64,000 nucleotides of DNA, from the NCBI RefSeq assembly GCF_000204055.1, contig NW_006768782.1:881079-945078 (forward strand), in the 5' to 3' direction. Under the pieces are notes generated by a model. That model had not been told where the DNA came from and did not search any database. It saw only the letters and a program-made list of their open reading frames with translations. The DNA comes from Melampsora larici-populina 98AG31. Lineage: Eukaryota > Basidiomycota > Pucciniomycetes > Pucciniales > Melampsoraceae. Shown one piece after another: positions 3 through 44,222 of this stretch (positions within the stretch are counted from its first letter, which is position 1; every line of letters begins with the position of its first letter). The translations under genes and the position numbers were made by a program.

Positions 3-617
3 GCGATAAGGAGACTGCCGGAAGCGGTAAGGACAGACCTAATAGAGTGGGAAGAAGTCTTGAGGAATTTCGAGAACCATAGGTTGATACCGAGGAAAGG
101 GGTAGAAAACGTAGGATGGGTCGGTGACGCATTGACGGGGTACGGGATAGGAGTGATAGTAGGAAAACATTGGACACAGTTGAAGTTTAAAGCAGGGTGG
201 AATAAAAGAGACAAGAAAGGTTTGAAGAGGGGTATCGCTTGGGCTGAGACGGTTGCCATACGAGTAGGCCTGGAAATGGTGAATGTGCTGCATAAGACGA
301 AAGGAAGGAGATTTCTAGCGATTACAGATAATACAGGAACTGAGGCGGTGATAAGGAATCAGAAATCGAGGGATCGGTCAGTGAATGATGAATGGAAGAA
401 GCTACAAAAACGTTTGACTTACTTGGGGTGTGAGCTAGAGGAGAAACACGTAGCATCAGGTGACAATAACGCAGATGCGCTATCAAGAGGAAAGAGGGGA
501 AAGAAATCGATACACTTCTACTTGCAACCGGACTTACCGAGCGACTTAACATCTTTACTAGAATACGAGAAGAGAAATGAAGACGAACTCAGGAGGGAAA
601 GAGAAAATCAGCTTTGA
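3..617 (+). CDS. Reverse transcriptase C-terminus and RNase H of YR retrotransposon copy 1 (5' partial)
   Basis: The reading frame is open from the window edge to a TGA at 617, so this is the tail of a longer polyprotein rather than a gene starting at the TTG near 60. The RNase H part has the four acidic positions expected for the DIRS/Ngaro type: GWVGDA, AWAETVAIR, TDNT and ADALSRGK. RNase H removes the RNA strand of the RNA-DNA hybrid during reverse transcription. No stop or frameshift interrupts this segment, unlike the equivalent junction in copy 2. It overlaps the following recombinase ORF by 41 bp in another frame. Confidence 0.85.
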   Translation, partial: AIRRLPEAVRTDLIEWEEVLRNFENHRLIPRKGVENVGWVGDALTGYGIGVIVGKHWTQLKFKAGWNKRDKKGLKRGIAWAETVAIRVGLEMVNVLHKTKGRRFLAITDNTGTEAVIRNQKSRDRSVNDEWKKLQKRLTYLGCELEEKHVASGDNNADALSRGKRGKKSIHFYLQPDLPSDLTSLLEYEKRNEDELRRERENQL

Positions 618-1041
618 CACATCGACAAAGATAGAAGGAACAGGTGAACAGAAGGAAAAAGTGACGGAGCACTTGGTGAAGGGAGCCTGGAAACCGGGTA
701 CGCTGAAAGGGTACAGTAGTGCGGTACAGAAGTTTAAGACCTATATTGAGAGCACGGGGAGAGAGTTCAAGAACGACGAGCCGATGGCGACAGAGGACGT
801 ATACGGTTTTATTGTGTGGGCAGGACCGTCGGAGGTGGGAAAGAAAACGGCTCCGGGGAGAGAATTAAAACCGAAGACCATATCAAAGTACTTGGCAGGA
901 TTGAGAGCTTGGCATATGGCAAAACACCATGAAGAACCGAAACTAGATAAGCAAATGGTGGACTGGTTAATAAAGTCAACGGAAAGATCAGAGGAAAAGA
1001 AAGAACTGACGAAGGAAGAGAAGTTGAACAGAGAGAAGAAG
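577..1041 (+). pseudogene. Tyrosine recombinase, N-terminal part (split by KDZ insertion)
   Basis: The ATG at 577 lies inside the end of the RNase H ORF. The product begins with a charged leader and then the SAM-like core-binding domain (WKPGTLKGYSSAV, FIVWAG, KTISKYLAGLRAWH), which aligns along its length with the intact recombinase of copy 2 (24012-25088). The frame runs without a break to EKKPIS and is then interrupted at 1049 by the KDZ element. Anything read beyond 1050 is transposon sequence. The catalytic half is at 17627-18331. Confidence 0.85.
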
Positions 1042-1049
1042 CCAATCAG
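1042..1049. repeat. 8-bp target site duplication, left copy
   Basis: CCAATCAG directly precedes the left inverted repeat and recurs directly after the right inverted repeat at 17627-17634. With one copy removed, the recombinase reading frame continues from KKPIS into VKDLF, matching the same place in copy 2. This fixes the insertion site. An 8-bp duplication is the length known for KDZ/Zisupton and hAT elements. Confidence 0.9.
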
Positions 1050-1357
1050 CACCTGCACGTGCACGTCCATACCAAACCCCATTCGGCCATACAGTGCATC
1101 CTATCACCAAATGAGGTTCGACGGCCTCTGCCAAGATGAATCATCCTCCTGAGAAGGATCTTGGGTAACCAGAGAAATGGCTAAGTTCCACTTTCTCTTA
1201 AGGGAGACCAACCCCGTGTAGTGTGATACTACAACCACACCATACCACCCTTAACCCACGCCCATACCCCCCTTCGAAGTCAAGCCACCCCCCTCAGCAC
1301 ATGCACCCCACCACCTTGAAACATAAACACCCCTCCCATACCACCCTTCATTTAACC
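1050..1357. repeat. KDZ element, left terminal inverted repeat
   Basis: It matches the reverse complement of 17324-17626 from the tip (CACCTGCACGTGCACGTCC) to CTTCATTTAACC, after which the two ends diverge. The differences I can see are five one-base indels, mostly in C runs, and about one substitution. The tip contains the palindrome GTGCAC. The inner part holds copies of CCATACCACCCTT, read as AAGGGTGGTATGG on the other strand. Confidence 0.92.
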
Positions 1358-1740
1358 ATACCCCTTCTAAGAAATTACCTCACCACTACCCCGGGTCCAC
1401 TACACCATCCTTCATCAAGCCCATACCGGCCCAAGAGATCAACTCACCACCCCGAACACACAAACCCACCACCTCAAAAACTTGTCAAACTATCATCAAG
1501 TTTCCCACCACGAAACAAAAACCCACCCCTAACCCCTCCACCCTCAAGCATACCCAGCTATACCGCACAACCTGTATAACACCTTGCCCGACCTCAAGCT
1601 TAGCAAACCCACCCATTCCTCACACATAACTTACACTAACACCACCACCCCTAAGAAAACCTCTGGTGGCTATCGTCATCTCCCATAAACACTTGTTAAA
1701 CACTTCCACCAACGCCTCACCTGGACATCTACCCTTCTCT

Positions 1741-4586
1741 ATGGCAAACACAATCCCAACCACCAACCTACTACTACCTCCTCCATTCGACCTCGTTGCT
1801 CCCGATTTGTCCAAACTTCAAGAGGCTCTTGATGCTCACGCTGAAGCAAACGGATACAAGATTGTCACTCGATCATCTGATTTAAAAAAAAACAAGATTC
1901 GCTACATCTGCCATCGATCTGGAGTCAAACCGTCTGAAAGCTCAACATCTCAGAAAACCGATTGTCCATTCGCCATCACTGCCTCCCAGGTCAAAGCACC
2001 CAATGTTCCAGATCACCTCCAGAAGATCGCTCTAGGCCCAAATACCACCAGTTCCCTTCCTCCAGTGGGTAGCTGGACAATCTACGTCAAACACCCTGGT
2101 CATAACCATGACCCAATAAACTCTAGAGTAAGTTCAATGGTTCGTTACTCGCACAACTTTCAAAAGTGAATCTCATAACATTTACTACCCATCTCTAGCC
2201 ACCAAAGACAAAGGCTGTGGTTGCAGAGAGCTTAACAGAGATCAAGCAGCGATCTAATCTGGTCAGTTATCTCTGTGTATTCCTTTATGACTCATTTGAC
2301 TCAAACTTCTACCTCTTTACCACCTCTAGATTTCCAACAAGCTGTCTCTGCTTTCAGACGTTGATCGCTCACAAGCCCTAGCCGAGATTGAACAAGTTCT
2401 TGAAAAGTATTACCAGGCACCCACTCACGATCAGGCACCCAGTATTCCCTCAGAACATCAAAAACCGACACCCATTGTATGTTCAATCCCACCAACCAGC
2501 TCAACCACTTTAACAACCACTGCAACAATCGATCAAGTAAGTCATGGAGAAAACATTATAACATCACCCAGAGCTATGGACTGACTCAATCTCCCCTCAT
2601 TTTCAAAGCATCGTGATCCTCTTTCCCCCAAGAAGAAGCGCAAACAGACCAAACTCAACACCATTTCAGTTCACAACCAAGGATCAAATGGCAACTTAGC
2701 TCCTTCATTTCTTCAGCCTCCATCACCTCCACAAACGAATCCGGTCATGTCTACGTTGAGAAACGAAATAAATCAAAACCTGAACTCAACCACAATCACA
2801 TCAGAAGGGGTCAGTTAAGCAATCAGCTTCTGTAACATCCCTTACACCTACTCACTAGATATGTATGTACTCACACAATTCAGACTACGGCTCCTCCCCC
2901 AAAGAAGAAGCACAAGAAGATCAAAAACCCAGATCAAACGGTATCGTTCAAGTTAGATTTAGAATCACATCACAGCTCTGATAGGTCAATGCGAAATTCA
3001 TCACCTCCAAAACCCAGCCAAACTTGCCTCCGGGAACCATCAACACGCTCAGCTGAAAAAATTCAAACAGCCCTACATCTGACCTCCCCAGCACATGAAG
3101 TCGATATACCTACTCAGCTTCCTTCTCAACCAATCCCAATTCACTCAAGCATTTCCGATCATCTCAGTGGCTTGGTTGACTATGATTCAGAACCTCTTGT
3201 AAGTAACCTTCAAGTTGTCCTTCTCCACAATACACTACAACTGAAATATGTATTATAGGCTTCTACCCACTTATCGCAGGCTTCAACTCCTCTGAGTCAC
3301 CCTACTGATCCAGCACTGGAGCCCATGGCAAGTCAGCTTTCACCAAACGATCTTCCACCTGCGGATCCAATGTCTTTGGTTAGTACTCAAATGAAACCAG
3401 TGCTCAACGCTTGAAAGCGCCCATCAACTTACAGCCTGATTTCCATAGTTTTCTCCACCCGGCGGTCATCAGGACGATGGCGACGAAAGTTTCAAAATTG
3501 AAAGTTTGATTCCACCCACTACAGACCCGAACCCCTGTACCACACCCACACCCGATTTACCCCCCGTTCCAACTTCCATATCACCTGTGAGTCGCATGCT
3601 TCCTTTTGCATGTGCTATCACTCAAACCTGATGCATGGTGTAGGTAAAGGTAAACCAAAAACGGTCGGTCAGGTCAAGCTTCAATCAGGAAGGTGACACT
3701 GGAGATCAAAGGACCACCCTTCGAAAGTCTACAAGGAACCAGCCAGACTCATCTCATCATACACTTCGGAAGTCCACCAGGAACAAGAAGAACTTGTCAT
3801 TAGTTGGTAGTGGGAAGCCTAAACACCAGCGCACCACAAAAAAAGTGTGTATGTTGCCCATCTACATCTTCCTCAAGAATTTGAAAGAAAGACTGACCAT
3901 GTTATGTGATTGCATAGGACAATCGCGTGCCCATTTGGCTCCACGACTACATCTCTGAGGTTGGTGACCCTGTTGGCGATGGACACTGCGGCTATCGAGC
4001 AATTGCAATGTCCTTAGGTCGAAGTGAAGATAACTGGCGCTCAGTATGTGAAGAACTGGTATCCGAACTGCAGTCAAAACGTGAATTCTACGAATGTCAC
4101 CTTAAGAAACGAAGCAAAGGGTACGGCGATGTACTTCAGCACATCAAAGACATCCAAACGGACAGGGACGAAGTTTTGGACACCCCGTCATTATGGCTCA
4201 ATTCACCTAGGTTGATGTATATCATCGCCACTACTTACAAGAGGCTCTTTTGCATTTATGGTAAATGTGTCGATGACAGTTTTTCAGCCCTGCCCCTGGA
4301 TGGTTCCGTGAATGATCACAATCCCATCTTTCTTTGTTACGATCACAAGGGTGTACATTTTTTGTCACTTTCTATCTCTTCCCCTATTTCAATCATCCCC
4401 ATACCAAAACCATGGCAAGAATGGTACAAGCTTGCGTCCCCAGAGGCCATCACTTGGGCTGATAGATACCAAATTCAGTTTGGTATCTTTGATCAATCCA
4501 TCAAGCCGATCATAGTTACAGAAAATCCAATGTTGTATTCCTCCCGCAATCAGCCTGTAGAGTTACATTCTTCCTCCGATTTGTAA
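1741..4586 (+). CDS. FAR1-like DNA-binding and OTU cysteine protease domain protein (multi-exon)
   Basis: The first exon, from ATG 1741, encodes a FAR1/WRKY-GCM1-like zinc-binding domain (YICHRS, TDCPFAI, HPGHNHD). A donor follows at about 2130. Short exons then give a helical stretch (SNKLSLLSDVDRSQALAEIEQ), Lys/Pro-rich linkers with KKKRK- and KKKHKK-type basic motifs, and two LRKSTRN repeats near 3730-3790. The last exon (from about 3919) is an OTU domain: catalytic Asp/Cys in DGHCGYRAI and a late His in GVHFLSL. OTU domains usually remove ubiquitin; FAR1-like domains bind DNA. The protein may act on transposon chromatin or silencing, which is inference. I did not resolve every splice site. 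Confidence 0.72.
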
Positions 4587-4860
4587 ATCTCAATGTAGTG
4601 TCAATAGTATTTACTGTTTCATCATTCCACTTGACACATAACTTGACATGTAAGTATGTCTATTGATTGATCTATTGATTGAGTGCGTACATATATGTTA
4701 TCGATTAGTTGTGGTGAGTATCAATATGTCACACCGGCCACCTCAACTGTCAAGAAGCCTTTTACAGGGCGTGAAAGGCGTAGCTTCATGTTCAGAGGTA
4801 TGTGTATACAACCCCAATTGAAATTCAAACCACTACACTTCACTTCACTTTTAAACCAAG

Positions 4861-7800
4861 ATGGCTCGATTCAAAGGACGCCACAAAACCTTTCATCCTC
4901 AAAGACCTTATTGGCTCAAGCCCCCCAAGACCGCTTTACAGAAGGCCCATTTCAACCGCATGCTCGCCGCCGTCCTTGCACAATCAAACCGACTTGCAGC
5001 TCAAATTCGCCACGATCAGAATCACGGTGGTCTCGACGGTGACGATGAACCGCTCTTACCAGAAGAAATCTGCGACCACCTTCCTCATCCGGATTTCATC
5101 GAGGAGATATATCGCGAAAGAATTGAAGAAGAGCGACGTCAACGTGTTCTCCTTCTGGAAAGGTCATCACCTGAAATGTTTGATGCGTACATCGAATGTC
5201 ATCTCAAGACTTCTGAATGGGGGAATCCAGTGCTTTGGGACTTCAATCACAAGCCTGCGTGTAACTGCCCACCTAGTCAATGGCGGGTAAGACAAGTGGA
5301 TCTCATTGACATTTTATGTAAGTATCACTCATGTCTTAATTGAAGTGATGTCTTCTATTATATCACTGATACCTACATTACACCTCCAAACGCTGGTAAG
5401 TCCGACGCAAGGCTAGCATTCGATTCTGTTCATGTCACAAAAGTGATCTAACCAGGCTGATCCTCATGGGATACATTGGCGGCTCACCAAAGTATCCTGT
5501 GACAGCTTTTTCCATAAGACTCCTCCGATTCTACCATGTCATATGGAAATATTGTACAACACGGGTGGCCCCATTCGCGCGAGGCCTGGACGAGTTTCTG
5601 GATGCGTTCAATCCACTCATGCTCACCAAGAGCGATCAGGTATGACATTTTTTTTCACTATCAACCATTAACACACAACAAAATTAACACCTTGTTTTAC
5701 TCCTATTGTTTTTTAGCCTTGTCAATGGCACACACCTTTGTACTGGGCGATCGACACGTATCGAATGATGCTTACAATGACGGAATCCGTCCTGGATACT
5801 CAACTACAACTTACCACCCTGGACAAGCTAGCTGAAAACTGCCCTCGGTGCTTTGGGCCTCCGGTTATGAGCGGTCTCATCTTATCTGAGCCGGACATCA
5901 TTGTTTGCCTCGATGGGAATTTCCAACATCGAAGGCATATAAGTGCTGGAACCAAAGCGGCCAAGACTCTGACGAAAATGCCAAAGCTGTTTATTCCGGA
6001 TCAGCAAGTCACTGAAATGGAACAACGACTTTCCGGTATGTCGGACAACGACTTTGTAAGTACTGATTCATATTTTCAAATGAGAAAAAAAATGACAAAT
6101 TTCTGGTTAATATGTTTCTATCCTATGCAGCAAGCGTGTGCCAACCAGCACACTGCAGCCAATGATACTCGCGGCAAGGGCCACTGGGCCGGATGCGATG
6201 AAACCGGTCTCATGGCAATGACTTGCCGTCATGACCACCCGCTTCGATATACAAATATAGTTCAAAGCGGGGAAAAGTGGGGTGAAGTGTCTTATAACCA
6301 GTGAGACAGACAGAGAGTCTGACTATATCATTGGTTTGTTCGATTGCCACTAGGCTCCATTATTCCTATACGCTGATCAATTGGATCTTGACTGTAACTG
6401 TGGATCTTGGTATTGATCCACAGCGGTTAGGCTTTTTGTATGACATAGGTTGTACAATTGAGAATGGGATTGTAAAGGTATGTTAGCACAAGCTAATTAT
6501 TCAATCAGTTATGGAATCAATACCTGATATCTTCAACCAGCGCGAAATGTTTGTAGAAGAACGGCGGCTTGGAAGACTGAAGTTTGGTACTAGTGTCTTC
6601 CACGCATATGTTCATCGATGGGCTTGCCAGCTGCTGTGGAATCCGAGGCTCAACGTGGGTTGGGGACTTTCTGACGGGGAAGGGTGTGAGAGAAATTGGA
6701 TGGATCTTGTGCCACTGGTGGCACCTTTACGATATTCAACGCCACAACATCGAGTTAACGCGATCAGCATGAAGGCCGACCACTGCAACTTCCATCGCCG
6801 TCACCATGCAGGTGCGTGATGAATTTGGTTGTAATTCTTCCATCAAGATACTGACAGATATCTACCAGCCCGAAATCTTGTCCGCAGAAAGAAGGAGGTA
6901 CATGCAAGGCTTCATGATGCGGAGCAGACACTCACCACCCTTGAGACTCCAGATGAAGAGTACCCTGGCCACGATTCTCATTTCTTTGAGAACTTGTGGA
7001 ATACTCGAAAGGCCCATGACCTGGACGCAATGAACAAGCAGAAGAGTCGTAAAAAGGAAATGATTGCAGTTTTACTGGGCTTAGAGGAGGAGCTCATAGG
7101 TGCTTGGTGATATCGTTTCATGCCTTTATTGTCGTATACAGCTGTTTACTCTGCTGGACTCTATCTCCCTCAATATCAGCGAACGACTTCGGACAATCCA
7201 AGCAACCCGACGAAGGGCCCGAACGGACGCTGACAACAATGAACTCATGGCTCTACCAGGGACGGTTGTAGATGTAGAAGAGCAGATTGAGGGTGTTGCA
7301 ACCGCGTTAGGAGGTGTTGCGTTTAGAGCTTTGGCGGGTGCGACTGGTGAGTTCTTTCCAATATAACTTATGAAGCCCAGCTAACATATCGTTCTTTGTG
7401 TCTCATAAAAGACAACAAAACTAATGCATTGATAGCCATATCAATTGCACGAAGTAACCTTTATGAGGCCAGAGTTGGCCTCACTGAATCCAGGCTACGC
7501 CGCCATCAGAATACTGGTAAGTGTTTAATATGTACACTTGTGTCATCTCATACTGACTTGACACTTCTCAATGAAATTGATAGGGCAGCGAGCTGCGCAA
7601 TACAATGCGCGTCAAGACAGCAAGAAGACTGCCAACCTACGCGTGAAGTACCAAACCTATGAGCGCAAAGTTCAAAAGTACCATACCGATTTTCCAAGGG
7701 CGGTACGTGTTCAACTCCCTGACCTTGTCACGGTCATGCGAATGTCATTAGAGGATAATTTCTGGAATCGGGGTGAGGTGGATGAAGAAGAGCACGGTGA

Positions 7801-8371
7801 TCATGCTGATAAGTTTAGAGCTGGTATAGACGCAACCCTACTGCAAAGGAGGGCGGTCGAGGAGCTGAGACGCATTGCCAGGGAAGTCCGTCAGATGATG
7901 GGTTGGGCATTTGAATATTATGAACAAATCATTTCATTTAAAACGCAATTAGAACAAGGTGGGTGAGCGCACTTCTATGTTGACATTCCAATGTAAAACT
8001 GATACCACCTGCCTGCAATTTCAGAAGGCGATCTAGCCTGTCAGACTAGGAAGAGGTCTCTACACAGCATCATAACGAGGAGATGCTGCAAGCTGTGGAA
8101 GAATTGAAGCCGAGACCTGAAGCATGAGCTTCAGGAGACTCGTGCATATCTGGATGATTGTGCTGAGCTAGATGAGGCTTTGGAGGTGTCTTGGGGTAGG
8201 GTGTGCGTCTGGGCTGGGCAAGAGTGGATGAATCTTGGAGGTGCTCTTGTAATTCGAGCTGAGGAGCCCGACGAGTATGAGGAACAAGAAGATCACATGT
8301 ATGACCATCTATATGACATGAATGGTGAGGTTCTATATGACATGAACCGTGACCTGTTAGGCTATGAGTAG
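4861..8371 (+). CDS. KDZ (CxC-type) transposase, multi-exon
   Basis: ATG 4861 starts an N-terminal region with a cysteine cluster (PACNCPPSQWRVRQVDLIDI), then MGYIGGSPKYP, typical of CxC-type KDZ transposases. The RNase H-fold core follows in order: VCLDGNFQHRR, GCDETGLMAMTCRHD, FLYDIGCTIENG and, at the end, WGLSDGEGCERNW. These supply the conserved Asp residues and a terminal Glu. Next come FGTSVFHAYVHRWACQ and coiled-coil-rich C-terminal exons ending in LLGYE. About nine introns of 60-130 bp break the ORF; the first junction (5320-5460) I could not place exactly. No in-exon stop or frameshift was found, so the enzyme may be active. It would cut and join the element ends. Confidence 0.85.
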
Positions 8372-9801
8372 AGAAGTGTGTAGTATACATTTACTTCATT
8401 CCTATAAACATCTATATCCTTGTATAAATATTATGAAATATTGTCTCATGATAAATACATTCCTGAGATGCCATTCCTTGAACAAAGCAATGAAGACTAT
8501 GTGCATGATCCCATATATATCATGAAAGGTTACATGTTTGTATTATAAGAAAATTGGATCACCTCTGGCAACTATTTGAAATGGATCATTTCTTACCAGG
8601 TTGTTTCATTTTTAACTGGATTTCTAGTTGAGGTTAGTGCACGCAAAGCTATTAATAAACTTTGCAAGACTCACATCAACATCAAAAAAAAACATGTTGA
8701 TAAACTGTGGCATTATGTTTGGGTTGGTTGATTAGGGGGGTGGTTGGCATGTGGGTTGATTTGACTCACACCATTTGGTGAAATCTTTGTATCATAGGAT
8801 GGCATCACATCCATTCATTATCAAATTGATCACAAATGTCTTGAACTGGTCACAAGAAACTGCATTACATGTAGATTTATCATATGGTTATATTATATCA
8901 TTTGACTTTGATTTGTTCTTACATTTGGTGATCAATGGAATAACCGCCAGATAAAAGATCACACGCAGAATATAGTCCTAAAACTGATGAAGTTAAATAC
9001 CCTGAACTGATAAATCTAATAGGAATTGGTGCAAGGTTTTGATTTAATTCTTTGATTGAATAAAACAATTGAGTAATTAATGGATCAGTTATATTTATAT
9101 AAATCAATAGCCCTTCATTGAAGTCTTTGGTGGAATCTATGAAACTAGGTTGGGGCAAATTGTAAGGTGGATCATATAAAGTCTCAATCCAATCATGCAT
9201 TGATTCTAGTGAAGTGTTTGGTAAAGGTGATAATTTGACCATGAGTGTCTGTTGGTGATTGATGATGCATTGTAAGGACTTTATTGAGTTATCACTGTCA
9301 AGATAGATCAAGATAGAGGTGGAGTTCGTTTTTGCATTGAGGAATGGAATGAGGAATGAACCAAGTCTTACTGATTATGGTGTGCTGGAGCTGGTGCTGA
9401 TCCTGGGTTGTCAGTAGCACTCTTTCTTGAGCTATCACTGTCCAGATAGAATCCAGATAGAAGTGAAGTTGGTTTTGGGTTTGAAGATTGGATCCAGAAA
9501 TGACAGAAGACTCACTGCTGATTACCTGCTGGGGCTGGTGATCAGTGGGTAGCACTGGTTCTATTCATTCTTGAAACTCAAAAATTTGGTGAAAGATGAT
9601 GGATATTGATGTGATTGGAATTGGACTTCAGGTTGATGAAGACTACAAACAATATCAAATAGTTGCTCAAGCAAGTTAAACAAAAGTTCATCACGCTGGA
9701 AGCCAGTGTAATTAAGGAGTTTATAAGGGATCAACACAGGGTTAAACCAATGTTGATCACGCTGAACATGAACAAAGTATATGAACAAAGTTTCAATATG
9801 C

Positions 9802-10432
9802 CCTTATAATCTCCTCTTGGCCAAGGGAGAATATATGTGAGCCATTAGGATTAACACAGTGGTTAACTCCTCATCCCTTATCATCTCCTTGCACCATTAC
9901 CAGAGTATAAAGGATAACTTAAGTTGATCACGCTGAACAAAAACATAGCACCCTGAACACAAACAAAGTATCAAGGTCACCCTGAACAAAAACTGGGCAA
10001 GCCACAAAGAAAGTATCAATATTTCTATTCCCTTATAATCTCCTAATGGCAAAAGCAGATTATAAGGAGATTATAAGGTATTCAGATTGACACACTGGTT
10101 AACTCCTAAATCGGATATAATGCCCTTTCCAATTAGGATATTCTAAGGTATTAACACTTGACACACAGTGTTAAACCTATGTTGATCACACCGTGATATC
10201 TGATATCAACATAGTTGCCATATCAATTCTATTCGATTATAATCTCCTTATTAAAATACGAGATTAGATTAGGATGAACTGGGTGGTAAGTACAAACTCC
10301 TATTAACTTATAATCTCCTTATCTTATAAGGTAACTTGGAAATACCAAGTTACGCACTTTATGAGATTCAACACCTTAAGCACTTTATGAGAATCATTCA
10401 TCAAGCAATACCTTATAATCTCATTATAAGGC
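9802..10432. repeat. Cluster of CTTATAATCTCC motifs in both orientations
   Basis: Variants of CCTTATAATCTCCTTA occur at about 9802, 9876, 10030, 10235, 10306 and 10411, and on the other strand as AGGAGATTATAAGG near 10058. Several pair with an adjacent inverted copy, for example CCTTATAATCTCATTATAAGG near 10411, and could form hairpins. Function is unknown. Confidence 0.7.
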
Positions 10433-10456
10433 AAGGAAAAGAATTAACATGTTATG

Positions 10457-11116
10457 CACCTAATGAGAATCTTCATCATACTTCATACTTAACATTCAAT
10501 GTTAAGCCATGATGACCAGTCTGTTTGATATGTGAGTTTGGACTCTCAAAAGTAAGTATATTTTGCATTGGACCTGAGTGGACCAAAACAAAGAAATGAA
10601 CCAAGTGACAACAATCACAAAGAAAACAAAGAGTGAACCAAGAGCCCCTGAATGTTAGAACACCAACAACTTATAGGCCCAATTATATACATAAACACCT
10701 TATAGGCCCAATTATATACATAAAGAATACTATTAGAAAATTGAATGTAACCATTTCACTGGATATGAATCAAATCTTCCACTGCACACCTAATGAGAAT
10801 CTTCATCATACTTCATACTTAACATTCAATGTTAAGCCATGATGACCAGTCTGTTTGATATGTGAGTTTGGACTCTCAAAAGTAAGTATATTTTGCATTG
10901 GACCTGAGTGGACGAAAACAAAGAAATGAACCAATTGACAACAATCACAAAGAAAACAAAGAGTGAACCAAGAGCCCCTGAATGTTAGAACACCAACAAC
11001 TTACAGGCCCAATTATATACATCAACACCTTATAGGCCCAATTATATACATAAATAATACTTTTAGAAATTTGAATGTAACCATTTCACGGGATATAAAT
11101 CAAATCTTCCACTGGA
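10457..11116. repeat. 330-bp tandem duplication
   Basis: Two adjacent units of 330 bp start at 10457 and 10787 with CACCTAATGAGAATC and differ at only a few positions. Each unit itself contains a ~34-bp doubled piece (TTATAGGCCCAATTATATAC). The near identity of the units suggests recent duplication. Small ORFs in the units are not convincing. Confidence 0.9.
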
Positions 11117-11418
11117 CCACCTCAAGTATGGTGTTTGCGGATTCCTTTCATCAGGGGTAGTATCTGACCTAACCCCCACAACTTGTTTATGATCATTTGG
11201 GTGGCAAGGTTTACTATTTAATTTCTTGTTGGGCGCGGGATGTTATTTTATATTTATACTCAAAAGTCACCTTCTGGAATAGCTTAACCATTGTTTGTGG
11301 GCACACCTGACAACAAAAAGTTCATAAGACAACAAGAAGAAAACATGAATGTATTATTTCGAAAATGATGACTTGATACCACAACCAACATTAGAAAATG
11401 TGTTCTTTTACTTGTAAA

Positions 11419-13253
11419 CTATATATCGAGGGCTGATAGGTAAGTTTGAGCAGCCTGGTGAGCAGCAGAAGCAGCTCGCGCCTTGTGCCTCCACTTTTTT
11501 TCCTCTTTTCTCAAGACCTTTCTGAAAGTTGGAACTGAGAATCCAGGTGGCGGAAACGGTAACCTCATGGAACCATCACTATATCTGGCTCTCCCAATGC
11601 AATCACTTCTAGCACCTGACACTCTTGCTGTACTGGCATACACGTCAGCGTGAGAGTACAAAGCCACAGATACTCGAAGAGGTCTGTTGCGACTCCCTGG
11701 AATTGGAAGTATTGTAGCCACCGAGTGATCCAGAAATTTGAAGCGGGCATGTAAGGAATAGCCAGGATCAGCACAAAAGCTTACACCTAGGGATCCAAAG
11801 TTCCAGCGGCCGCCGGAATAGTCGCGACCATAAGCAAACACTGAATCAATCAGATTGGAGTTTTTGCCATCCCGATGTGGGGCTACCTGTATATTATAAT
11901 TAACATGCTGTCCTGAAACATAAACATATTCAAACTGTTAACATAGGAAAGATATATATCAGGTTTGGATGAGGATGACTTGCCATGGATGATGTGGTTG
12001 TCCGTTCTTTCCAGGTGTTCCACAAACAGCGGATCGGAGTTTTTTTTGAGATAGCTGATAACATTTTCAGCCACTTCGTAAGTCTCAGGCTGGACTGCTG
12101 CGTTGACAACTCGTGACACCTCGTAAGCCCAATGCAATTGTTGGATTCTTCTGGCATTATCGACCCTCTTGAAAAGGCAATCCTCACCCAGCCCCATGAC
12201 TTTGGGGAGATGTCGGTCAGAATTGGGCCAGTCCCCACAATCTTCAAGCCTGTAGCCCTGGCGGTCGAAGCCCAATTCCATCTTGGTATCAGCAAGGGCA
12301 TCAGGCTGGCTTCATATAATCAGTTTGAAGTTTGCGACTTTGGCTGTGAGCTTAATCATAATGTACTTACAGAACCAAGGCCAAAACCGTAGGTCTCATA
12401 AGCGAGGTGTCCATTCAGGGCCCCGGGGACAGGAACTGGATAGTTTCCAAGGTTTGAGTGTCGTGCGGTCGCTGAAATGGAAGGGCTGAAAGCACTATCA
12501 GAAGATGAGATTTTGGCTTCTAGGATGTTTTTGTTAATAGGTCCAATGAAACCAGGTAAAGCGTGTAGATGTGCAGAGCCTTCTAAAGCTTTGAGACCGC
12601 TTACCTGTCATGTAAAGCGATAATCGGTTATATTGTTAGAAAGGATTACATGGTGAACAACTCACGGCAGCTACTGAAGCTTTCGCATTGGGAGGAAGGC
12701 CCATTGCCAGGAACCGTCCAGCCAGATCCACCAAAACAATCGCCTTATTCGAATTCAAAGGGCGGGGTGACTTAGATCTCTCAGCAATTAGGACTTGTAA
12801 GGCTTTGAAATTGGGGTAGCGGAGACCGAAAGGCCGTTCAGATCCAGGTTGTGATTCGTGGGCTATGATGGTTGACTTGATGTATAAAGCGCAGGTTTCA
12901 ATGTCATGCTGGCGAGAGTTGATGGGAAACAGGATATCCAGATCGTTCAGGACGATGTCAATAGATTGAGGTATATTGGGTAGGGAGAGGTGATTCGTTT
13001 CGAAAAGAAAGAAAGTCACAGCCAAGTCGAAGTCAATAACTTCAGGCGTGATATCCCCTAGGGAATCATCTACTAGGGATTGCCGAACGAATTGGTCGAC
13101 CATCGAGTTGTAGTTGAATCGATTTTGGTAATGATAACCAGGTTTTTCTGGCTTGAATCTGTCGGGTAATAGTGCAGTGCGTTTACTATTACCCTTGCCT
13201 GCTGGGTAAGGTTCGATCGGAGGTTTTCCGGGCTGCTTTCTGTGGGGCGGCAT
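11419..13253 (-). CDS. TET/JBP-family 2-oxoglutarate/Fe(II) dioxygenase
   Basis: The start is ATG 13253 (MPPHRKQPGK; an in-frame ATG at 13271 is an alternative). There are four exons, with introns near 12604-12667, 12310-12370 and 11887-11945. The last exon holds the dioxygenase core: iron ligands His and Asp in APHRDGKN, then GGRWNFGSLGVSF, DPGYSLHARFKFLDHSV (distal His) and RPLRVSVALYSHADVY, whose Arg should bind 2-oxoglutarate. This pattern is the fungal TET/JBP type; family members oxidise 5-methylcytosine or thymine in DNA. All key residues are present and the exons are open. It lies inside the KDZ element, as reported for this family in basidiomycetes. Confidence 0.85.
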
Positions 13254-13271
13254 GCTGGGTAAGAAGAACAT

Positions 13272-14213
13272 CGATTAGCATCATGACACAAACACGATCA
13301 ATAAAAGGAGACAGAGTTGAACGATGAAGGAAGAAAGGAGGTGGAATGTTGTTTAATGGACTTGAATATTATCAATCCCCATGTTGCAACCGTGGAAGAG
13401 TGGATTTTGCAGCCTGAATATTATCAGTCCTGCACCACTGGGAATGAGGAAGTCGGGGGGTGATTGAGATGTGATGTGGGAAGATGGAAAAGGCTTACCT
13501 TTGAAGTGTAGATAGGTTTTTAGTGCAAACACGATGGAAAAGATGTAAGTGACGAAGTATGTGTGGGAATCGGGGGTGAAAATCGAAAGCAAAGGACTTA
13601 CCTGATGTATAATGGCTGTGTGGTTGGAGAGCAGGGGCGGGGATCGAAGGAAAGGGGAAAAGGGAACTGTTGACCTTACGAAGACGGTACAGATTTTTCA
13701 CTTGGATTTCAGTATTGGTGCGTCTTGGTGACACGTGACCCAATTGTATGTGAAACCGTTGCGAAGTGTAGGTCCAGGCGACACCTAGACCTGAATTGAG
13801 GTTCATGTAATTTTGGTTTGTTGGGAACCCCTGACTGAGGTGGCCACATATGGGTGATGTGTCCCACTCTGCTAGAAGCTGCTTGCGCTGACAGGCAAGG
13901 CGGCCAGGCAATCAAGATCCCCTGTTCGAGTTGCGGACACGGCCCTTTTTTAGCTACCCAATCAGTAGCAAGGCGCCTATCTTGTTAAGTTATTGGGGAT
14001 TACTTCCTGGGTATTGCTATGATGTGGGCGTCTCACTTATTCACTTATTATTCCAGGGGTCCCTCATGAGTGAAAAGTTTGTAAATTTCAAATTGGATGA
14101 AATGAAGGACAGATGATGTCTATAAATTATGAATTGAAATCTATAATTTTATGACTTTTGATCAATTTTAAGCACAGCATGTTTGTGATATTTAAACACA
14201 ACACTACATCATA
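13272..14213. other. Spacer between the two minus-strand KDZ passenger genes
   Basis: About 940 bp with no convincing gene. It should contain the promoter of the TET/JBP gene at its left side and the 3' untranslated region of the unknown gene at its right side. Open frames at 13353-13911 on the minus strand lack a recognisable domain and overlap each other in different frames. Confidence 0.55.
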
Positions 14214-16203
14214 CTACAACATGGGTGGGTGGTATTCAGCAGGAGTGACTGGGTTCACAGGAGTAACAAGTTTTACCGTGTAGCGTCGCGCCAAGATATT
14301 GTCGTACCAGGTCTGCATCAGATCTTTATCATTCATGATTTCTGCAGGCCCACGTGATAGCATCTCGGCAGTGACCTTAGAGTCACTTGTTTGATGCACC
14401 TCGAGTTTGATACCACTTCGCAATACATGGTCGCAGTTGCTCCTCTTTGGATGGTTATGGACTCGAGGTTTGATGAATTTGCTATTGACGTTTTCAAGGT
14501 GGTTTACTTATATCATACCCAAAGAGAGTCAGAGTCAGGGATCTAAAACCGGAAGGTTTGATAGGGTTCAGGTTCAGACACGAAAGGAAAACACTTACAA
14601 ACAAGACCATTCAATTCAAATGTAAAGTCCTTGCGTAACTGGTCATTTGTACTGACGCCAGAACCGGTAGGTTTTGCCTTATGGTTTGAGGAGTTATTGT
14701 GTCCGGTAGCATAGTGATCAAATCGCTCCAGGAGATGATTACGAGAAGAAAATGTAGCGAGGTACACGAGATCAGAGCTATACTCCTTACTCCAGCCTGC
14801 TGAAGGGTTGGTGGTCGTAGGGTTCCATGACGCTGCCATGAGGTGGTATTGGATTCCGTATGCCTTGTGGGTCACCTCAAGCTATGGTTCAACATGACTT
14901 CAGTTGTGGTGGTTGTTCGAAAATGGCAATCACACACTTACAGAAGAGTGTATTTGTTCAATCTGCGCAATGCCTTTTTCTTGGTACTTCGCACTTTGAG
15001 TTATGTCGCGACTCAAAGCCATATGATCTTTTACCTTCTGGATGTTGATGAGGCGTTCAAAAGCCGGCTTAAATTCTGCTTCTTCCACAGTTAGTAATTG
15101 GTGAGGTTGAAGATTGGCAGGATCGTTCGATACCACAAGAGCAATGCGGTCGAATAAGACCTTGTCAAATATGGCAACATCGGTAGTTAGCTTGACTTTT
15201 TGCCAAGCATCGCAAACGATTTCGTTGTAAGTTGCCAGGCGATCTGATTCCTCTGGACTGACGTCTTCACCATTTGGTGGAACCACTTGAGGCACTGTTT
15301 TTGAAGGGATTGATGCTTATTTGTTAGCAAGGTCTGTCGCGGCATGAAACAAGACAGTACGTACTTTTGTTGTCAACTGTGGCCACCAAACTGAATTTGC
15401 GGAAGAGATGGTAGGGTGAGATATCCATTTCGCGTCCTCCCCGATGACTGCCAAGAAAAAAAAAAAACACCGTCAGACCAAACTTTTGCTTTGGAGATGA
15501 AGATGAATAACTCAACACCCCGTATCTGAGGGTGTCATATGTAATCCCCCCAGCCAGACTCAATACTTTCAGGCGAGTTATGAGTTGTTCTTCAAGAGCC
15601 CTGGCTTCGGTGAGGATGTTAAATCCAATTCGGTTGTGACCAGAGGCTTTTGCACAGCGTAGATAGTGTTCCAGTTCCATGTCAGTCCATTCGGCAGCAA
15701 GTTCCTTATAGTTGAAAAGGGTGGGTTTGGTAATGGGCTTTTTCGGGAGCGGCATGCCATTCAAATCGACAGGTGGTGCAGCAGAAGCGTCCGGTACGGG
15801 CAATTCTTCTTCTTGATGAGGATTCTTACTCTTTTTGCTAGCCACCTTGCGGCGTCGACGCCGCTTTTTTGGTAAAGAACCACCTTGACCATCTTCTGAG
15901 TCCGGCTCTGGTTCAGATTTGTCTGAATCTGAATCTGATTTTGCTAGTAATGCAACATAGGATTTGTAAGTTTGTAGTGACCTACACAAGGAATGATAAA
16001 TTTGTGACTTACTTTGGTATGATGATGAAGAGTCATCAGAGTCATCGCTATTGGTCCCATTCAAATCTGAAAAAGAAGACCAATCAGAAAATCATCAGAA
16101 TGCATTATTAACGCTGAACTAAATAGAATAACACACCTTTTTCATCCTGGACATCATTCTTTTTATTCTTTTCCAGAGATCTACCACGGGTTTTAGGTGC
16201 CAT
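14214..16203 (-). CDS. Unrecognised passenger protein of the KDZ element, acidic N-terminus and basic cluster
   Basis: ATG 16203 begins MAPKTRGRSLEKNKK. Short exons then give a Ser/Asp-rich acidic stretch (NSDDSDDSSSS, SDSDSDKSEPEPDSED), directly followed by a KKRRRRRK basic cluster that looks like a nuclear localisation signal. A folded region follows: ELAAEWTDMELEHYLRCAKAS, then PQVVPPNGEDVSPEESDR, then SWNPTTTNPSAGWSKEYSSD and HLLERFDHYATG, ending PAEYHPPML. At least six exons are needed and are free of stops in the frames followed. I do not recognise the family. Position and strand next to the TET/JBP gene suggest a nuclear partner in transposition or modification, which is inference. Confidence 0.6.
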
Positions 16204-17323
16204 CTGATCTGGGGGGACGATTTGAAAGATCAAAGACGGCGGGGAGGACTGTAATAGATCAAAGAAGGCGGCTGGAATAGAAGTGAATAAAAGGGTAAGG
16301 TGAATAAAAGGGTAAGGCGGATTTTTTCTGGAGGTCAGTGGAGGTAAACAGTCAAGACTCTTTGGGGCGGTGTGTTTTATTTGAAGGAATTTCATTATAG
16401 TATATTAGGTTTGTCTAGATGATGAATTGACTTTTTTTGAATTATTTTGGATTGGATTTTTTTCGATCTAGTCATAGTAAGGCTATTTGAATTTGAATCA
16501 ATTGTGTGTGTATGGATATTTGTGGGATCTTGGGGTGGAGGAGTTGGATTGTGGAGTTCGATTGGTAATAGATGGTGTGAGGAAGATGTCAGATTCATAT
16601 GAATTTGGTCCGATTTGATACAACTGGTTGAGTGGATGTGAAACGTTTTGGTGACAGTACGCTAGTTGAGGAGGTGGTTTTGGTGAGGGTGTATTATTCG
16701 ATCATCTTGATGTGTGTAGAGGGAAAGATTCGATAGGATAGGGTGGGATGAAAAGGATGTTGAGGGCAATCGAAAGAGATTGATTGTTCTAATTTGGAAT
16801 CAGTACCATACATTTTGTTGAGATCTGAGAGATGTGGTGAAGGGTGATGTGTTGGCTTGGCATCTTGGTATAAGGTGCGTGAACTTATGTACATTGGTTG
16901 AGCTGTTGAGGGGGTGGAATGTCCACTAAATGAGTGGATCAAGGGGGTATGATATGGCTAAGATGTGTATATGAGTTATAAAGTGGAGCTAGCTGGTTGA
17001 TGGGGTGACGTTCTGGGGTGGTGTGGTATGTAGCTTCTTAAGATGGGGATGGTCTGGGTGTGGTATTTGAGGAGACTGGTTGGTCGGTCTTATGGGGGTG
17101 GGCTGGTGTCTGGACGGGGTGTATGGATTTCATGGCATGGTATGGTGGGTGTGGTATCGGGCAAGACACACGGTTCTGTGTTGAAGTGGTGGGGTGCTGT
17201 TGCTGCTGTTGGGGTGGATCGATTTGGAAGGGTGGTATGGTAGTGGTGTGATATCCCAGAAATACAGAGGGCTCTGTCATGAGGTGGTGGGATGGCCTGT
17301 TGAGGGGTGGATAGGTTTCCCTG
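16204..17323. other. Right subterminal region of the KDZ element, G-rich on the plus strand
   Basis: No gene seen. The upstream 200 bp should hold the promoter of the unknown minus-strand gene. From about 16600 the plus strand becomes strongly G/T-rich and C-poor, with repeated GGGTGGTATGG near 17228, 17334 and 17420, the last two inside the inverted repeat. The many open frames here are low-complexity consequences of this composition. Confidence 0.6.
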
Positions 17324-17626
17324 GGTTAAATGAAGGGTGGTATGGGAGGGGTGTTTATGTCTCAAGGTGGTGGGTGCATGTGCTGAGGGGGTGGCTTGAC
17401 TTCGAAGGGGGGTATGGCGTGGTTAAGGGTGGTATGGTGTGGTTGTAGTATCACACTACACGGGTTGGTCTCCCTTAAGAGAAAGTGGAACTTAGCCATT
17501 TCTCTGGTTACCCAAGATCCTTCTCAGGAGGATGATTCATCTTGGCAGAGGCCGTCGAACCTCATTTGGTGATAGGATGCACTGTATGGCCGAATGGGGT
17601 TCGGTATGGACGTGCACGTGCAGGTG
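17324..17626. repeat. KDZ element, right terminal inverted repeat
   Basis: Reverse complement of the left repeat, ending ...GACGTGCACGTGCAGGTG at 17626. It is 303 bp against 308 bp on the left. Confidence 0.92.
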
Positions 17627-17634
17627 CCAATCAG
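17627..17634. repeat. 8-bp target site duplication, right copy
   Basis: CCAATCAG, identical to 1042-1049, lies directly after the right inverted repeat and continues into the recombinase coding sequence. Confidence 0.9.
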
Positions 17635-18331
17635 TGTGAAAGACCTCTTTGAGATGGTATCGGAATTAAACAAGAAATCACCCCAACACGAATTAGCAAT
17701 GGTGATAGGACTGGTGGCCTTTTGGGGAATGGCAAGATTAGGAGAACTGCTACGAGAGAAGACGGAAGATGGGGCAATAAAAGTCGAGGATTTGAGTTTC
17801 GAAAGAGGAAAGAGAGGTAGGATAGCAGTGATAAAGCTGATGAAGGCAAAGACGGCGAGACCGGGAGAAGCTCAGTACATAAGGTGAGTGAGACGGGTCT
17901 GACGAAGCAGGAAAGTAAGATACTGATGACGATGAGATCGGGGAAGTAGGATGCACGAACAATACTCGGTCCTGGACCCAGTATCGGCGCTGGTAAGGTT
18001 CTTAGCACAGGAACACCCGACGAGAAGAAAAACGGATATACTTTTCTCCACAGCAGGGAACGGAGAACGAGAGACTATATCAAAAGCGAAGTTCATAAAG
18101 CTGATGGAGTCGGTATGGGGGTCGAGCGGAGTGAAAAAGGGAGGATGGTCTGGGCATTCCTTTAGAGTAGGCGGAGCATCCCTAAGATTTAATATGGGGT
18201 GGGATAAAGAGAGAATTATGGAGGCAGGAAGGTGGAAATCTGAAGCGGTAGACTGTTACTTGAAAAGATGCTCGGATGAAGAGAAAGAAGAGACAAAACA
18301 ATTCTTATGGGTGATTGACAAAAGGAATTGA
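17635..18331 (+). pseudogene. Tyrosine recombinase, catalytic C-terminal part (copy 1)
   Basis: This continues the gene broken at 1049. The catalytic set is visible: Arg in GMARLGELL, His and Arg in GHSFRVGGASL, and the nucleophile Tyr in DCYLKR after GRWKSEA. A 66-bp intron at 17884-17949 (GTGAGT...TAG) removes an in-frame stop and joins YI to HEQYSVLDPV, which matches copy 2 (SVLDPVKAL). The stop is at 18329-18331. Apart from the KDZ insertion I see no inactivating change, so the host gene was probably functional when hit. The intron is absent from copy 2. Confidence 0.85.
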
Positions 18332-18668
18332 AGAGGAAGGGCAAGCCACGGGGAGATAATACGCGGAAGCAATAGAAATGCAACAAACTTTGATCTCGCG
18401 TAAATTAATTTACAGAAGTAATCACGTAGCTGAAGATAGCCAAGTAACAATACAATTGACTGAGCAAGATCTTTAAGTTTAAATATACAAATGAGTAAGC
18501 GATGAGTCTTGAGTCTTGAGTTAAAACTGAGCAAAGCATGCCCCAAGAACCCACTGAGCTAGTGGTGAGCCCGCGCGAGTTGTGGGTCCCTCAACAAGTT
18601 GAGACTCTCACGAGCCTCCACTAGAAAGGAGGGATGAGGAACCCACAAAGGGATCGACAAAACCAAAT
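18332..18668. other. Presumed terminal region of YR retrotransposon copy 1
   Basis: Non-coding. It contains short inverted motifs such as CTCAACAAGTTGAG near 18593 and doubled GAGTCTTGAGTCTTGAG near 18507. No copy of the A or B repeats of copy 2 is seen here. Confidence 0.45.
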
Positions 18669-18919
18669 AAGGATCTGCATAGCGTCTGCGGGGATTAAAC
18701 CGAGACGCAAAAGAGAGCCGATCCCCCGCCCGGGCTCCCCCAAACACTGTTCGACCTCAGCCATGATAATAGGCCAAGGTCGAACTAAGATGACCAATAA
18801 TGAAAAAGATCTAATAGTAGAATTAGGATCTACAAGTACATAATTTAATAAAAGAAATAAAATTTAAATTATGAACTTAAAAAGACCTTACCTAACACGT
18901 AAGGAACTCAAAGAATGGA
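18669..18919. repeat. 251-bp direct repeat X, left copy
   Basis: It runs from AAGGATCTGCATAGCG to AACTCAAAGAATGGA and recurs at 26247-26497 in the same orientation with two or so substitutions. The two copies bracket YR retrotransposon copy 2 but lie outside its A and B repeats (96 bp before A1 and 132 bp after B2). It has no LTR-type TG...CA ends. Confidence 0.85.
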
Positions 18920-19015
18920 TTGGTAGTCTTAACTAAGGAACGGCTTAAGGCATAGTTCCATGATTGAGTTGGGACGTAAGAGGGTAAACCCATAAGTTGG
19001 GAAAACAGAGTTTTC

Positions 19016-19226
19016 ATGAGTAGGACCAGTAAAGGCACGTATTGGTGCGCGTGTCCACTAGGTGACATGTAATATACATGTCACAAATATAGTTACGAAG
19101 TTGGTGTTGGGGGAATGAAACGAAATTTCCCCACTTCGTAAGAATTCTTCGACAGCTGTTCCTCAAAGTATTCAACTCAAGCGTTTATAGCTTGATTCAA
19201 ATCTTTTAGTTGTGAATTTTTAGATA
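19016..19226. repeat. Split direct repeat A1
   Basis: Starts ATGAGTAGGACCAG and ends AATTTTTAGATA. It matches A2 at 25574-25798 except that A2 has 14 extra bases after GTGTCCACTAG. It includes a short inverted pair GGGGAA...TTCCCC near 19110. Confidence 0.88.
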
Positions 19227-19277
19227 ACAAACATTAAATATTAAATTTAATTTCAGAATCTTTTAACGATAAAAACA

Positions 19278-19798
19278 ATGTCTTTCTTAGAACAGTTAGA
19301 TCAGACAAATAATCAGTTAAATCAGGATCAAACACAACTCAACCAAGATTTAAATCAACAAAACACTCCGAGAGATAATACAAATCAACCTAATGTGGAT
19401 CAGATTAATCAAAACGAAGATCGAATCTTGACTCGCGCCGAGGCAGCTGCAAAAGGAATTCAACCGAGTTCGAGACTTCTGACTCCGAAACGCGGTACAA
19501 ATGGAAGAATTACCGGGAGGAAAAGCAACGGATCTCGTACGAAAAGCCTTTGAGGAATTGGAATACCAAAGCGAGGTCGAAGACCGGTAGGAATCAAGAA
19601 AGCAAAAGGAATTAGAAAAGAACATAAGAAGAAAAACGAGAATAAGCAGAATGAAGATAAAGAGGATCAGTTAGAAGATCATCAATCAGGAGATCAAGAA
19701 ACAGAAGAATGGGGTGGAATTGGAGATGTTGGAATGGAAATAGTGGAGGAGGAAGGGATAAAGGAGGGTAATGATGGTGGTCAGTTTGGTAAGTAATA
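19278..19798 (+). pseudogene. Leading ORF of YR retrotransposon copy 2 (Gln/Asn-rich, then basic and acidic), one in-frame TGA
   Basis: ATG 19278 begins a Gln/Asn/Asp-rich segment (LDQTNNQLNQDQTQLNQDLN), then RAEAAAKGIQPSSRLLTP. A TGA at 19551-19553 interrupts the frame, which then continues in phase through an AT-hook-like PKRGRRP, a Lys-rich part and an acidic tail to TAA 19798. A change of CGA to TGA would explain the stop. No known domain. It sits where copy 3 has its own charged leading ORF (57891). Confidence 0.6.
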
Positions 19799-20150
19799 GA
19801 CATTTATCTTATGAAAAAATTCTTACATCATCTTATCATATCCGACCAATTCCACATATTTCAAAAAAATATTCTATCAAAGTTTCTCCTTTTACATAAA
19901 CCCAATTTCATTCGCTAGATTCTTTAATTCTATCTTTTTCGCTTCAAATTATAAAATTCTTCTGCTACGGGAAAGTCCAAAGTGAATTCAACGTCGCAGT
20001 CCACATTGACATTAGGAAAACGTAATGCATACCTATATATTGGTGAAGAAATGCTTACGGAAGTAAAAAAGAAGTTACCCTTGATTTGCTTCCTTCTGAA
20101 TACTAGTGTCGAAATCGAGTTATGGTCAGAGGACGTCGTGAAATCAAGAA

Positions 20151-20480
20151 AGCCTGGCCCGGCTAAGAATAGGAGCCCAGCCTGGCCCGGCTAACAATAG
20201 GTGTCCAAAGCCTGGCCCGGCTAACAATAGGTGTCCCAGCAAGGGTCCGGCTTAAAACAGGACCCCAGCCTGGTCTGGCTTACAATAAGAACCCAGCTAG
20301 CCCAGCTCACAATAGGAGCATAACCACGATTGGTTTAGCCGAGTATAGGCACGGGATTGGGCCCCAAAATTCGTAAACCCAGTAAAAGGCTGGTCGTTGT
20401 ACCCAGGATCATCCAGCCAGCCCAGCTTATAATAGGAGCATGACCACGATTGGTTCTAGCCAAAATATACAGGCAAGGGT
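20151..20480. repeat. Cluster of AGCC-N6-GGCT inverted motifs upstream of gag (copy 2)
   Basis: AGCCTGGCCCGGCT occurs at 20151, 20179 and 20209 and AGCCTGGTCTGGCT at 20267. Weaker forms are near 20238, 20294 and 20416. They are spaced by about 28-34 bp, most separated by (C)AATAGGNGNCC-like linkers. Each can fold into a 4-bp stem with a 6-base loop or pair with its neighbours. A similar cluster lies ahead of gag in copy 3. Confidence 0.8.
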
Positions 20481-20597
20481 TTAGATCCCAAGTTCAAAAT
20501 TCATAAAAGAGATTCGGTGGTTGTCCAAAGGAGAATTTAAATGGAAACCTGAGAGACAAAAGGAGTTTTAGCAAGGATAAGAAACTAATGATAGATT

Positions 20598-21887: not shown

Positions 21888-21914
21888 GTCATAAACGGGA
21901 GAGGACTATTCTTT

Positions 21915-44180: not shown

Positions 44181-44222
44181 CCGGTGGAATACAGAACAAG
44201 TAAGGTTTGGGTTGGCAGGATA

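What the first reader, a model, noticed from the sequence alone, without database searches (positions are those of the whole stretch)
1050..17626. A 16.6-kb KDZ transposon carrying transposase, TET/JBP dioxygenase, FAR1-OTU protein and an unknown nuclear-like protein
Sharp ends, near-identical ~305-bp inverted repeats, an 8-bp duplication and four apparently intact genes point to a recent, possibly active unit. KDZ/TET-JBP association is known in basidiomycetes. A four-gene cargo with an OTU protease/FAR1-like fusion and an unidentified acidic/basic protein would be a self-contained mobile system that may edit both DNA methylation and ubiquitin marks. The joint function is inference.
Basis: partly seen in the sequence, partly recalled or inferred. 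Interest (0 to 1): 0.88.

Follow-up and report, generated by a model that had tools for sequence, protein, structure and literature searches.

The report
Jumping gene carrying mark-erasing enzymes
A jumping gene of a poplar rust fungus carries, beside its own mover gene, a gene whose enzyme is predicted to oxidise methylated DNA, a gene whose enzyme is predicted to strip ubiquitin, and a gene of unknown role; some sister copies in the same genome hold different versions of these parts, so it is likely a mix-and-match kit for escaping the fungus's silencing defences.

Summary
The element is real: window 1050-17626 (16,577 bp), 8-bp duplication CCAATCAG, inverted repeats of 308/303 nt with 301 of 303 aligned bases identical. 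Host: Melampsora larici-populina. Transposase: KDZ (Pfam 9.6e-58). The four genes form one unit: the order FAR1-OTU / KDZ / dioxygenase slot / unknown protein recurs in diverged copies, and tested exons of all four evolve under purifying selection (dN/dS 0.13-0.25). The OTU domain rests on fold.

Corrections: the transposase has a premature stop, losing 87 codons. The dioxygenase is optional: none was found in full-length copies C4 and C7, and C39 holds another Tet-like dioxygenase (PF20515) in that slot.

New here: parts reassort in some copies. C4 and C7 differ by 9% in KDZ protein but 43-44% in FAR1 and OTU; C133 and C180 share a dioxygenase (16% different) but not the rest (36-45%).

TET-carrying Dileera (KDZ) transposons of this species are published (PMC12730594), whose main text mentions neither OTU nor FAR1. 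Function is inference. New variant of a known kind.

The parts
1042..1049 (.). 8-bp target-site duplication, left copy (CCAATCAG)
1050..1357 (+). left terminal inverted repeat (308 nt), begins CACCTGCACGTG
1741..4586 (+). FAR1-OTU fusion gene, 9 exons, 766 aa: FAR1-like zinc domain (exon 1), low-complexity linker with basic stretches, OTU domain (last exon)
   Evidence: relatives P0006-P0012
1741..2127 (+). FAR1-like exon; C-x17-C-x45-HxH spacing in the window copy; sister C4 copy scores FAR1 PF03101 E=0.0045, below the curated cut-off
3918..4586 (+). OTU domain exon (DGHC box and later His present in 7 of 7 aligned copies)
4861..8371 (+). KDZ transposase gene, 11 exons; KDZ PF18758 9.6e-58, CxC1 PF18802 9e-27; premature stop at 8105-8107
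8919..9374 (-). possible fifth open frame, 151 aa, with matches at C38, C9, C12 and C32; coding status uncertain
11419..13253 (-). TET/JBP-like dioxygenase gene, 4 exons, 545 aa; HxD, His and Arg present in 5 of 5 aligned copies
14214..16203 (-). unknown gene, 7 exons, 518 aa, acidic/basic N-terminus; relatives found only in Melampsora
17324..17626 (-). right terminal inverted repeat (303 nt)
17627..17634 (.). 8-bp target-site duplication, right copy (CCAATCAG)

Best explanation
This is a 16,577-bp KDZ-family DNA transposon of the poplar rust Melampsora larici-populina, one of a family of diverged sister copies in its genome, that carries a transposase gene, a FAR1-OTU fusion gene, a TET/JBP-like dioxygenase gene and a gene found so far only in Melampsora, and it likely uses the dioxygenase and the predicted deubiquitinase to counter host silencing so that its predicted cut-and-paste transposase can act. 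Shown: ends, TSD, genes, recurring gene order, purifying selection on tested exons of all four genes, uneven divergence that marks exchange of FAR1-OTU (C7 against C4 and C126) and of the dioxygenase (C133 against C180 and C59), and a different Tet-like dioxygenase family in the same slot in C39 (read here) and, by match coordinates, in six other loci. Inferred: the dioxygenase oxidises methylcytosine on the element; the FAR1-like domain brings the OTU protease to element DNA, where it removes ubiquitin from chromatin proteins or from the transposase; the unknown protein is a partner of the transposase. The window copy is recent but its transposase is truncated, so it may now depend on a sister copy to move.
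Against: No activity is shown for any enzyme. The TET match is below Pfam's cut-off (22.1 against 34.9 bits) and finds nothing in the PDB by sequence. OTU by sequence alone is weak (Pfam E 0.096) and the model's mean pLDDT is 54. No dioxygenase was found in C4, C7, C126 and C187, so the unit can persist without it. CpG content gives no support for protection: the TET-carrying window copy has the lowest CpG o/e (0.58) of 10 elements compared. TET and PF20515 are never within 15 kb of each other (0 of 27 TET loci), but shifted controls give only 1-4 of 22-23, so exclusion is not proven. Exchange is not general: of 11 pairs set out (picked), C4-C126, window-C59, C187-C2 and C2-C39 are even or nearly so. 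The correlation contrast is fragile: without C7 KDZ-OTU rises to 0.44; among the five copies outside the C18/C4/C7/C126 group KDZ-OTU is 0.71 and KDZ-unknown 0.85; and FAR1 and OTU, parts of one gene, correlate at only 0.48.
Confidence: 0.5

Rival explanations
1. The OTU protease protects the transposase or another element protein from proteasomal breakdown and has nothing to do with chromatin marks; only the dioxygenase is an anti-silencing tool.
For: For DUBs of Helitrons this role is proposed in PMC9741609 (passages). OTU and the dioxygenase can occur apart: C4, C7, C126 and C187 have OTU without a dioxygenase found. Outside one group of copies OTU and KDZ distances correlate (0.71, ten pairs).
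Against: OTU is fused to a FAR1-like domain, which points to action on DNA; over all nine copies OTU divergence does not track the transposase (r=0.15).
Confidence: 0.3
2. The extra genes are passengers captured by chance and carried without benefit to the element.
For: Dioxygenases were found only in some copies.
Against: dN/dS 0.13-0.25 on tested exons of each gene, similar order and spacing over diverged copies, and two different dioxygenase families in the same slot, without BLASTP similarity to each other (best E 0.29 for the pair).
Confidence: 0.08
3. The uneven divergence between genes reflects old duplicated lineages sorting differently, or uneven rates, and not exchange of parts.
For: Most pairs are saturated at synonymous sites; ten copies besides the window were read in whole or part; several pairs are even.
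Against: C4-C7 have 4-fold differences of 0.23 and 0.24 in KDZ and the unknown gene against 0.67 and 0.69 in OTU and FAR1 (Fisher p 9.7e-9 and 7.1e-7 against KDZ), while C4-C126 is even; C133-C180 shows the reverse for TET.
Confidence: 0.15
4. The four genes sit in separate nested elements.
For: The dioxygenase slot of the window has no DNA similarity to that of C4 and C7 beyond the transposase end.
Against: At 25 nt or more, no inverted-repeat pair inside the element brackets a single gene; one 26-nt 81% pair (3323-3348, 11963-11988) spans several. Same order in diverged copies.
Confidence: 0.03

Closest known systems
TET+ Dileera (KDZ) transposons of Pucciniales (Kojima 2025, PMC12730594; abstract, introduction, section 19, second third of the Results and first part of the Discussion read; passages searched)
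   Same: KDZ transposase, 8-bp TSD, TET/JBP gene inside, families reported from P. graminis, P. triticina and M. larici-populina; transfer of TET genes between transposons reported
   Different: No mention of OTU, FAR1, protease or ubiquitin in the main text; exchange is described between superfamilies for TET, and I saw none described for FAR1-OTU parts among copies of one KDZ family. I could not see its Table S1, so this family may be listed there.
Zisupton of fish (name from zinc finger SUMO protease transposon and Ulp1 domain in one isoform: recalled, no call shows it; 8-bp TSD from PMC12730594)
   Same: KDZ superfamily, 8-bp TSD, a protease of the ubiquitin/SUMO class
   Different: Here an OTU, not a Ulp1, in a separate gene fused to a FAR1-like domain
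Helitrons with OTU and VTD deubiquitinase domains (PMC9741609, PMC6431247; passages)
   Same: Transposons carrying deubiquitinase domains, OTU among them
   Different: Rolling-circle elements with the domain in the element's large protein; no dioxygenase mentioned in the passages read
VANDAL elements of Arabidopsis with VANC anti-silencing proteins (PMC5735166, PMC10398659; search listing with start of abstract)
   Same: A transposon-encoded, DNA-binding anti-silencing protein; works-like comparison only
   Different: VANC is neither a dioxygenase nor an OTU protease (recalled); different transposase family
IS3EU elements of rusts with transposase, TET and alpha-kinase (PMC12730594)
   Same: Multi-gene rust transposon with TET between two other genes
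   Different: Different superfamily (6-bp TSD) and a kinase in place of FAR1-OTU

Membership tests
KDZ transposon superfamily | KDZ transposase domain (PF18758) with CxC cysteine cluster | tested here: met
   KDZ 9.6e-58, CxC1 9e-27, both over cut-off
KDZ transposon superfamily | terminal inverted repeats and 8-bp target duplications | tested here: met
   window, C4 and C7; C180 has repeats but its flanks hold no matching 8-mer; not resolved in the other copies
KDZ, Dileera subgroup | placement of the transposase in the Dileera clade | not tested
   no reference tree built; PMC12730594 reports TET+ Dileera from this species
TET/JBP dioxygenase | Tet_JBP profile match | tested here: inconclusive
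   22.1-23.6 bits against cut-off 34.9
TET/JBP dioxygenase | HxD ... H ... R residues of the Fe(II)/2OG site | tested here: met
   present in 5 of 5 copies aligned; roles of HxD and H from PMC12730594, of R recalled
TET/JBP dioxygenase | oxidation of 5-methylcytosine | not testable with these tools
   needs an enzyme assay
OTU cysteine protease | OTU fold | tested here: met
   (model pLDDT 54, pTM 0.56)
OTU cysteine protease | catalytic Cys and His | tested here: met
   DGHC and HF[LM]S present in 7 of 7 copies; roles recalled
OTU cysteine protease | curated Pfam match | tested here: inconclusive
   E 0.096, below cut-off
FAR1 DNA-binding domain | PF03101 match | tested here: inconclusive
   C4 copy E 0.0045, 18.1 against 28.1 bits; none for the window or C7 copy; profile A3 finds AFT2 (4lmg) at E 0.057

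The most novel reading that the evidence does not exclude
Rust KDZ elements are modular counter-silencing vehicles: a transposase plus a Melampsora-specific partner form the chassis, and a DNA-guided deubiquitinase (FAR1-OTU) and one of two different Tet-like dioxygenases are interchangeable cassettes that shuffle between elements much as phage modules do, so that one transposon removes both methyl-DNA and ubiquitin marks that silence it.
Probability: 0.3. Interest if true: 0.82.

Novelty: new variant of a known kind. Interest (0 to 1): 0.62.

Why it matters
It would add a second, protein-level arm (ubiquitin removal) to the known DNA-level arm of transposon counter-defence in fungi, and it gives a natural experiment: closely related transposases (window, C4, C7, C126), one with a TET and three with no dioxygenase found, in one genome. 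A slot filled by either of two different dioxygenase families would point to selection for that activity, and the genome holds at least 150 matches to PF20515, a family that no paper in one search names.

Tried and rejected
AlphaFold of the unknown protein (P0002 with four relatives) failed: pLDDT 37, pTM 0.20; no fold claim made. Its profile finds nothing in the PDB at E 10, and Pfam gives nothing at E 1. Its homologues in the protein database: five (query 421 of 518 residues), five, all Melampsora; that search needs shared words and similar length, so remote kin may be missed. CpG and TCG content as a test for protection from hypermutation: no support; stretches of C39, C133, C126, C59, C187 and C2 there include some flank. 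Of the two TIR substitutions one fits a TCG-type transition, too few to read. First automatic gene models over-split exons and were dropped for hand-checked ones. The idea that OTU never tracks the transposase was checked again and weakened.

Rows dropped before the counts: 6 of 48 unknown-gene matches and 1 of 42 FAR1 matches (two more merged), as second pieces of a locus; 150 OTU rows became 149 loci; for TET, two extra pieces dropped and two loci added. KDZ and PF20515 lists are partial (the listed rows of 207 KDZ matches plus 44 rows; PF20515: 150 of 263 candidates scored), so absences are not proven by them. Two of the 12 close loci with a dioxygenase within 15 kb (C12, C65) have it on the far side and are not counted as slot-filled. 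C2's fetched stretch holds 5.3 kb of N and its slot is left undetermined. In C59 no OTU was found genome-wide; its stretch holds 2.9 kb of N and ends near the transposase start. C32's stretch holds TET and the unknown gene only.

Literature: the listings of searches showed no paper on an OTU gene in a KDZ transposon; listed papers other than those named here were not opened, apart from passages of PMC9297572. Iyer et al. 2014 is not held. The library holds open-licence papers only, so this is no proof of absence from print.
Full report
OBSERVATION. The element runs from 1050 to 17626 (16,577 bp). CCAATCAG stands at 1042-1049 and again at 17627-17634. The termini align over 308 and 303 nt with 301 of 303 identical bases and five 1-nt gaps. 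Joined flanks with one TSD copy align through the junction to uninterrupted paralogues (L035, L036, L037, L039). The target is an already decayed tyrosine-recombinase-like frame (weak Phage_integrase match, E 0.0055; further stops), 38% identical to an intact frame at 23907-25088.

HOST. The window is G000:C18:881079-945078 of a 98.3-Mb, 243-contig genome. P0004 is MELLADRAFT_106551 of Melampsora larici-populina 98AG31; it matches the typed unknown protein at 99% over 19% of the query and contains nearly all of the window's TET model.

FAMILY. Whole-genome searches give 28 close OTU loci. Of these, 26 have the FAR1 exon within 3.2 kb, 15 have the unknown gene within 22 kb and 21 have KDZ within 15 kb. 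The dioxygenase slot on the KDZ side holds TET in 3 and PF20515 in 7 of 28. I read ten copies besides the window, some with gaps of N, and a 4-kb piece of C38. C4 and C7 have the same CACCTG...CAGGTG ends and perfect 8-bp TSDs; C180 has the ends but no matching TSD. Dioxygenase status in the eleven: TET in the window, C133, C180, C59 and C32; PF20515 in C39 (2.4e-44; also found without any join); none found in C4, C7, C126 and C187; C2 undetermined. TET and the C39 enzyme share no BLASTP similarity (best E 0.29 for the pair). KDZ points the same way as OTU in the window, C4, C7, C126 and C133 and the opposite way in C39, C180, C187 and C2.

WIDER LINK. Among all OTU matches, 56 of 149 lie within 15 kb of KDZ (controls 4-14 of 122-136) and 55 of 149 near PF20515 (controls 6-9). 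For the 121 distant OTU loci, KDZ and a dioxygenase are both near at 28, against 0-3 of 54-108 in shifted controls. So OTU, a Tet-like dioxygenase and KDZ go together beyond this family. TET and PF20515 are never within 15 kb of each other (0 of 27), but controls give only 1-4 of 22-23.

SELECTION AND EXCHANGE. dN/dS in pairs with pS under 0.6: FAR1 0.14-0.21, OTU 0.25 (one pair), KDZ 0.14-0.16, TET 0.13 (C133-C180) and 0.23 (window-C32), unknown 0.17-0.25. Divergence differs sharply by gene in some pairs. C4-C7: KDZ 9%, unknown 12%, OTU 44%, FAR1 43% amino-acid difference. C133-C180: TET 16%, KDZ 41%, unknown 36%, OTU 43%, FAR1 45%. C133-C59: KDZ 19%, unknown 19%, TET 62%. C4-C126 is even at 15-17%. 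The window's transposase is 17-18% from C126, C7 and C4, while its OTU is 39% or more from every copy. Of the 11 pairs set out, chosen, C4-C126, window-C59, C187-C2 and C2-C39 are even or nearly so. Across nine copies KDZ and unknown distances correlate at 0.86, KDZ and OTU at 0.15, but also FAR1 and OTU, one gene, at only 0.48; without C7 KDZ-OTU rises to 0.44, and among the five copies outside the C18/C4/C7/C126 group it is 0.71 against 0.85 for KDZ-unknown. I read this as a KDZ-unknown chassis with FAR1-OTU and dioxygenase parts that were exchanged in some lineages; exchange is shown for particular copies, not as a rule.

MECHANISM (inference). The dioxygenase likely oxidises methylcytosine on the element, as argued for TET+ transposons in PMC12730594. 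The FAR1-like domain likely guides the OTU protease to the element, where removal of ubiquitin from chromatin or from the transposase would help transposition; the second idea has a precedent proposed for Helitron DUBs (PMC9741609). The unknown protein may work with the transposase. Base composition gives no support for protection from hypermutation.

KNOWN AND NEW. TET+ Dileera transposons with 8-bp TSDs are published, this species included (PMC12730594); its main text has no OTU, FAR1, protease or ubiquitin. New here, as far as the listings of searches show: the FAR1-OTU gene and the unknown gene as parts of a KDZ element, the alternative PF20515 dioxygenase in the same slot, and reassortment of parts in some copies.

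Noticed in passing
window 8919-9374 minus: Open frame of 151 aa inside the element with matches at C38, C9, C12 and C32 of the same genome (51-67% identity for the main matches); frame broken in C38; possible fifth gene or remnant.
   Followed up: partly
window 10457-11122: 335-bp tandem duplication, 97% identical, inside the dioxygenase slot.
   Followed up: no
window 11419-16203 minus: The public model MELLADRAFT_106551 joins the first exons of the unknown gene to TET in one protein; likely a merged annotation.
   Followed up: partly
window 562-1049 and 17635-25088: The element sits in a tyrosine-recombinase-like frame; downstream lie an RT-like frame (21888-23282, RVT_1 E 0.0096, below cut-off) and a second, intact recombinase-like frame (23907-25088): likely DIRS/Ngaro-type retroelements.
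   Followed up: partly
window 38706-44321 minus: Retrotransposon frames, one with RNase H and integrase zinc domains (39720-40874), likely Ty3/gypsy type.
   Followed up: no
window 55180-56220 minus: DyP-type peroxidase N-terminal domain (PF21105, 2.7e-39), an ordinary host gene candidate.
   Followed up: no
P0006-P0012 and window FAR1-OTU linker: Short motif LVDY[DEK]S[ED] in the linker of all seven relatives and of the window protein; role unknown.
   Followed up: no
genome G000: At least 150 PF20515 Tet-like dioxygenase matches in this genome, about a third near KDZ transposases (50 of 150 within 15 kb, controls 7-13 of 124-139).
   Followed up: partly
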